Source: Liolophura sinensis
Taxonomy: Eukaryota; Mollusca; Polyplacophora; Chitonida; Chitonidae
DNA length: 64,000 nt
Reading direction: 5' to 3'
Assembly (NCBI RefSeq): GCF_032854445.1
Contig: NC_088304.1
Location: 31,131,732-31,195,731, forward strand
Part shown: positions 8,340 to 9,180 of the stretch, piece after piece
How the letters are laid out: the number at the start of each line of letters is the position of its first letter
Numbering within the stretch: position 1 is the first letter of the stretch
Notes under the pieces: model-generated
The model's input: the letters and a program-made list of their open reading frames with translations, nothing else
Told to the model about the DNA's origin: nothing
The model's database searches: none
Translations under genes and position numbers: made by a program

Positions 8340-9180
8340 ATCCATACATGCCATGAGTACACCTTGTCACAGAGTGTACAGGTGAAAGTGTCCACTGGGG
8401 TGTATATAGATGACCTGTCACTAGCCTGTACATGTCCAGATCTCTCTGTCCTGAGTACACCTTGTCACACAGTGTACAGGTGAAAGTGTCGACTGGGGTG
8501 TATATAGATAACCTGTCACTAGTCTGTACAGTAGGACTTGTGTATGTCCAGATCTCTCTGTCGTGAGTACACCTTGTCACAGAGAGTACAGGTGAAAGTG
8601 TCCACTGGGGTGTATATAGATGACTTGTCACTAGCCTTTACAGCAGGACTTGTGTAAGTCCAGATGTCTCTGTCCTGAGTACACCTTGTCACACAGTGTA
8701 CAGGTGAAAGTGTCGACTGGGGTATATATAGATGACCTGTCACTAGCCTGTACAGTAGGACTTGTGTATGTCCAGATCTCTCTGTCGTGAGTACACCTTG
8801 TCATACAGTGTACATGTGAAAATGTCCACTGGGGTGTACGCAGATGACCTGTCACTAGCCTGTACAGTAGGACTTGTGTATGCCCAGATCTCTCTGTCGT
8901 GAGTACACCTTGTCACACAGTGTACAGGTAAAAGTGTCCACTGGGGTGTATAAAGATGACCTGTCACTAGCCTGTACAGTAGGACTTGTGTATGCCCAGA
9001 TCTCTCTGTCGTGAGTACACCTTGTCACACAGTGTACAGGTAAAAGTGTCCACTGGGGTGTATAAAGATGACTTGTCACTAGCCTGTACAGTAGGACTTG
9101 TGTATGTCCAGATCTCTCTGCCGTGAGTACACCTTGTCACACAGTGTACAGGTAAAAGTGTCCACCGGAGCGTACGTAGA
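8340..9180 (-). repeat. 112-bp array duplicating the end of CCDC157
   Basis: Eight units with a 112-bp spacing (stops or stop-equivalents near 9079, 8967, 8855, 8743, 8631 and 8519). The first unit is the coding end of CCDC157: zinc finger plus stop. The others lie 3' of the stop. Each unit still encodes, in its own frame, a [12 protein letters not shown] finger. Units 2, 3, 5 and 6 keep the C2HC pattern, unit 4 has lost one Cys, and units 7-8 are truncated. Because 112 is not a multiple of three, no continuous multi-finger protein is encoded. Confidence 0.9.

What the first reader, a model, noticed from the sequence alone, without database searches (positions are those of the whole stretch)
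8340..9180. CCDC157 zinc-finger exon end duplicated seven times beyond the stop codon
The first unit of the 112-bp array is the coding end of CCDC157 (C2HC finger, then TAG at 9079). Seven further units follow on the same strand, and most still encode an intact C-x2-C-x12-H-x3-C finger in their own frame. The unit length breaks frame, so a poly-finger protein cannot be read straight through. The units would however be transcribed in the 3' UTR if the AATAAA sites near 8241-8273 are used. This looks like a coding module caught in minisatellite expansion, and a source of variable C-termini by slippage or splicing.
Basis: partly seen in the sequence, partly recalled or inferred. Interest (0 to 1): 0.75.

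Follow-up and report, generated by a model that had tools for sequence, protein, structure and literature searches.

The report
Minisatellite copying a gene's last exon
In a chiton genome full of short tandem repeats, the last 112 coding bases of a sperm-associated gene, stop codon included, have been copied seven more times into its 3' end, where they drift like non-coding DNA and leave the protein almost untouched: an ordinary, slightly curious minisatellite.

Summary
On the minus strand, six full 112-bp units plus two damaged ones run head to tail from 9188 to 8354. Unit 1 is the coding end of the last exon of a 10-exon, 767-aa CCDC157-like gene: a C-x2-C-x12-H-x3-C finger, then TAG at 9081-9079. 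Of the seven later copies, four keep the finger motif, one has lost a zinc ligand (C to Y) and two are truncated. The only canonical poly(A) signals lie beyond the array, so it is probably 3' UTR.

The proposed function is not supported. Differences among the post-stop copies fit neutral drift (6 synonymous, 15 non-synonymous; 5.7 and 14.4 expected). Tandem in-frame stops (TAG TGA) follow the finger. Simulated gain of whole units never changes the protein; simulated loss leaves an intact finger in 92% of cases. No strong splice sites or RNA structure appear in the array.

The assembly statistics match the published chiton Liolophura (GCA_032854445.1, HiFi). Twelve sampled 10-kb pieces are about 15% minisatellite, so an array over a last exon is expected somewhere.

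Best reading: a neutral minisatellite, seeded by tandem duplication of the exon end and remodelled by unequal exchange.

The parts
9079..17170 (-). CCDC157-like gene, coding exons 17170-16920, 16577-16406, 15487-14758, 14184-13994, 12754-12578, 12267-12099, 11368-11223, 10730-10639, 10074-9848, 9227-9079; 767 aa
Evidence: Hand-built model, every intron GT-AG, one open frame.
9077..9188 (-). Unit 1: coding end of exon 10, C2HC finger, then TAG TGA
8965..9076 (-). Unit 2, post-stop, finger motif intact
8853..8964 (-). Unit 3, post-stop, finger intact, 99.1% identical to unit 2
8741..8852 (-). Unit 4, post-stop, zinc ligand lost (C to Y)
8629..8740 (-). Unit 5, post-stop, finger motif intact
8517..8628 (-). 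Unit 6, post-stop, finger motif intact
8419..8516 (-). Unit 7, 14-bp deletion, finger destroyed
8354..8418 (-). Unit 8, truncated inside the finger, joined to unique sequence
8241..8273 (-). Cluster of three AATAAA signals, the first canonical poly(A) signals after the stop

Best explanation
It is a neutral minisatellite. A tandem duplication of the last 112 bp around the end of exon 10 (finger, stop and two more bases) placed a copy behind the stop codon. Unequal exchange or replication slippage then multiplied, deleted and partly homogenised copies: 2 and 3 are a recent single-unit duplication, and 5-6 and 7-8 look like a two-unit duplication. Only unit 1 is translated. Copies 2-8 are probably carried in the 3' UTR as passengers. 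Shown: anatomy, stops, neutrality of the copies in the finger frame, single locus, minisatellite-rich genome. Inferred: transcription to the AATAAA cluster, the order of events, absence of function.
For: Among units 2-8, distinct changes in the finger frame are 6 synonymous and 15 non-synonymous, against a neutral expectation of 5.7 and 14.4 (P of so few non-synonymous changes 0.71). In the finger itself the counts are 4 and 9, against 3.5 and 8.9. Three of seven copies have lost the finger. Tandem in-frame stops TAG TGA follow the finger in units 1-6, and the same bases are kept in unit 7. Folding of the array RNA is no better than shuffles, z = +1.24. Twelve sampled 10-kb pieces of the genome hold 21 minisatellite arrays covering about 15%, and the window holds 13 covering 9.5%.
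Against: Four copies still have an intact finger motif, and the whole-frame pN/pS over all unit pairs, unit 1 included, is 0.43, lower than in the other two frames (0.64 and 1.86). That figure counts shared differences repeatedly and includes the coding unit; the count of distinct changes among post-stop units removes the signal, though with 21 changes the test has limited power. No transcript or population data could be examined.
Confidence: 0.9

Rival explanations
1. The array makes variable CCDC157 C-termini, through alternative splicing into different units or through copy-number change.
For: In every unit the CCCCAG before TGGACA could join exon 9 in the finger frame (my reading of the phase), and four post-stop copies are intact.
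Against: The CCCCAG acceptors have pyrimidine content 0.62-0.69 and T content 0.25-0.38, against 0.81 and 0.75 for the real exon-10 acceptor; the best donor that recurs in the repeats scores 0.3 bits, against 1.5-6.5 for eight of the nine real donors of this gene. Copy gain never changes the protein and loss rarely does. Any such form would carry nearly the same finger.
Confidence: 0.04
2. The repeated units act in the 3' UTR as a regulatory element (RNA structure, or repeated protein or small-RNA sites).
For: Position between the stop and the first poly(A) signals. The seven bases around the unit junction do not vary, though this is too few to mean much.
Against: No excess of RNA structure. 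The differences fit a neutral pattern in the finger frame, which does not test other constraints.
Confidence: 0.04
3. Assembly artefact: expansion or collapse of the array.
For: The same assembly holds a contig with about seven tandem mitochondrial genomes, so it does contain concatemer errors.
Against: Units differ by up to 13% and are individually distinguishable. HiFi reads average 8,347 bp at 14x (PMC11068029), ten times the array length.
Confidence: 0.02

Closest known systems
PRDM9 zinc-finger coding minisatellite
   Same: A minisatellite whose unit encodes a C2H2-type finger and which varies in copy number (PMC3890296).
   Different: The PRDM9 unit is 84 bp, in frame, without a stop, and varies mostly at DNA-contact codons. 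Here the unit is 112 bp, breaks frame, contains stops, and evolves neutrally after unit 1.
3'-UTR VNTRs such as the 40-bp repeat of SLC6A3/DAT1 (from general knowledge, not looked up)
   Same: Tandem array in the 3' UTR of a protein-coding gene.
   Different: Here the unit descends from the coding end itself and the array straddles the stop codon.
CTCF finger 11 (PDB 5yel)
   Same: C2HC finger with the same C-x2-C-x12-H-x3-C spacing as unit 1 (alignment; the finger number is from general knowledge).
   Different: Part of a poly-finger DNA-binding protein; here a single terminal finger on a coiled-coil protein.

Membership tests
Minisatellite / VNTR | Head-to-tail units of about 10-200 bp with high identity | tested here: met
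   TRF 112 bp, 92% matches; pairwise identity 86.6-99.1%
Minisatellite / VNTR | Copy number varies between individuals | not testable with these tools
   One haploid assembly, one locus
PRDM9-like coding finger minisatellite | Unit length a multiple of three, open through the array | tested here: not met
   112 bp; TAG TGA after the finger
PRDM9-like coding finger minisatellite | Selection on finger codons of the repeated units | tested here: not met
   Synonymous and non-synonymous counts at neutral expectation
C2H2-type zinc finger (PF00096 or related) | Spacing of four ligands and match to the profile | tested here: inconclusive
   Spacing fits with the last His replaced by Cys; 22.5 bits against a 25.2 cut-off for the isolated finger, 16.9 bits in the whole protein
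CCDC157 | Sequence similarity to known CCDC157 along the protein | not testable with these tools
   No Pfam family or solved structure for it; N-terminal resemblance is from memory. Two CCDC157 papers contain no occurrence of 'zinc'.

The most novel reading that the evidence does not exclude
The array is a built-in frameshift backup: because the unit is 1 modulo 3, a ribosome knocked into another frame within the last exon often still ends on an intact finger in unit 2 or 3. Single-base deletions give this at 141 of 146 exon-10 positions and two-base deletions at 56 of 146, against 0 of 200 for shuffled 3' UTRs tested with a one-base deletion at one position. Such buffering could be used or selected.
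Probability: 0.03. Interest if true: 0.55.

Novelty: new member of a known kind. Interest (0 to 1): 0.2.

Why it matters
It shows how a domain end can be amplified tandemly without changing the protein: a unit that carries its own stop shields the reading frame from copy-number change. In a genome where about 15% of sampled DNA is minisatellite, this may be a general reason why arrays can sit on gene ends. The practical point is for annotation: intact domains found just behind a stop codon here are neutral copies, not a hidden poly-finger protein.

Tried and rejected
Poly-finger reading: rejected, the finger frame ends in TAG TGA in every full unit and the unit breaks frame. Coding on the opposite strand: plus-strand frames across the array are broken by stops. 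Spread of the module elsewhere: single locus. Kinship with the other 112-bp array at 22260-22961: no similarity, the equal period is coincidence. RNA structure in the 3' UTR: none. Confirming the gene name by Pfam or PDB: no family or relative held. Literature on arrays straddling a stop codon: nothing relevant in the searches made. An ortholog comparison was not possible: the tool states that this genome has no relatives in the set.

Full report
What is there. The array lies on the minus strand between 9188 and 8354: six full units of exactly 112 bp, a seventh with a 14-bp deletion (98 bp), and an eighth cut off after 65 bp and joined to unique sequence. Unit 1 is the end of the last coding exon of a gene that I rebuilt by hand: ten exons from 17170 to 9079, every intron GT-AG, one open frame of 767 aa, ending ...[28 protein letters not shown] and TAG at 9081-9079. 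The finger has the spacing C-x2-C-x12-H-x3-C. It scores just under the Pfam cut-off for zf-C2H2 (22.5 against 25.2 bits for the isolated finger) and resembles solved C2H2-type fingers, among them a CTCF finger with the same C2HC spacing. The name CCDC157 agrees with my memory of the family, but no family model or solved relative is held here to test it. Two papers on CCDC157 contain no mention of zinc, so whether the terminal finger is ancestral is open.

Where it comes from. The genome has 609,464,459 bases in 632 contigs, with contigs of 96,433,062 and 37,343,639 bases. The published assembly GCA_032854445.1 of the chiton Liolophura has 632 scaffolds, a longest scaffold of 96,433,062 and an N50 of 37,343,639 (PMC11068029). 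The species was later corrected from L. japonica to L. sinensis (PMC12441733). It was built from HiFi reads averaging 8,347 bp at 14x, so an 0.8-kb array with distinguishable units should be assembled correctly; I could not inspect the reads.

Is it transcribed? The canonical poly(A) signals nearest after the stop are AATAAA at 8273, 8263 and 8246, beyond the array; the next (ATTAAA) is at 7711. So the array is probably 3' UTR (inference).

Are the copies used? Over all unit pairs, pN/pS in the finger frame is 0.43, but this includes the coding unit and counts shared changes repeatedly. Counting each distinct change once among the post-stop units 2-8 gives 6 synonymous and 15 non-synonymous, against 5.7 and 14.4 expected without constraint; in the finger alone 4 and 9 against 3.5 and 8.9. 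Unit 4 has lost a zinc ligand and units 7 and 8 half the finger. The post-stop copies therefore look like non-coding DNA; the intact ones are young, not protected.

Could it vary the C-terminus? In the finger frame TAG is followed at once by TGA in every full unit. I simulated all whole-unit gains and losses with in-register breakpoints: 2652 of 2652 gains leave the protein identical; 2452 of 2652 losses keep an intact terminal finger and 2501 keep the length of 767 aa. Splice sites in the units are weak compared with those of the gene. RNA folding of the array is not better than shuffles. Slippage or splicing as a source of variable C-termini is therefore not supported.

How it grew. Units 2 and 3 are 99.1% identical. 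Units 5 and 7 share private variants, and units 6 and 8 are 96.9% identical over the shared stretch, which points to a single-unit and a two-unit duplication. This is normal minisatellite turnover. In twelve 10-kb pieces from eleven contigs, chosen without regard to content, I found 21 arrays covering on average 15% of the sequence; the window has 13 covering 9.5%. With so many arrays, some must be expected to overlap last exons.

A curiosity. Because 112 is 1 modulo 3, a frameshift in the last exon often runs into an intact finger of unit 2 or 3 and its stop: 141 of 146 single-base deletions and 56 of 146 two-base deletions. This follows from the arithmetic of the unit and needs no selection; the neutral pattern of units 2-8 speaks against a selected backup.

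Verdict. Observation confirmed; mechanism ordinary. It is most likely a neutral minisatellite born from the coding end of a gene.

Noticed in passing
G000:C99 (about 8,000-103,000) and G000:C632: Contig C99 holds seven COX1 copies spaced about 15.5 kb, that is tandem mitochondrial genomes, most likely an assembly concatemer; C632 holds another copy.
   Followed up: partly
window 22260-22961, 54570-55185, 63289-64000: Further long-unit arrays (112, 154 and 109 bp). The second 112-bp array has no similarity to the finger array.
   Followed up: partly
window 12876-13846: A 30-bp minisatellite of about 32 copies inside the intron just before exon 5 of the same gene.
   Followed up: no
window 7844-8187: A 29-bp array of 12 copies lies just past the poly(A) signals of the gene.
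   Followed up: no
window 34384-37692, minus strand: Open frames matching PF02366 (protein mannosyltransferase; one above the cut-off, one below), so a POMT-like gene is a neighbour.
   Followed up: no
G000:C6:12000000-12009999 (L026): A 5.9-kb array of a 51-bp unit, about 115 copies, in a piece chosen without regard to content.
   Followed up: no
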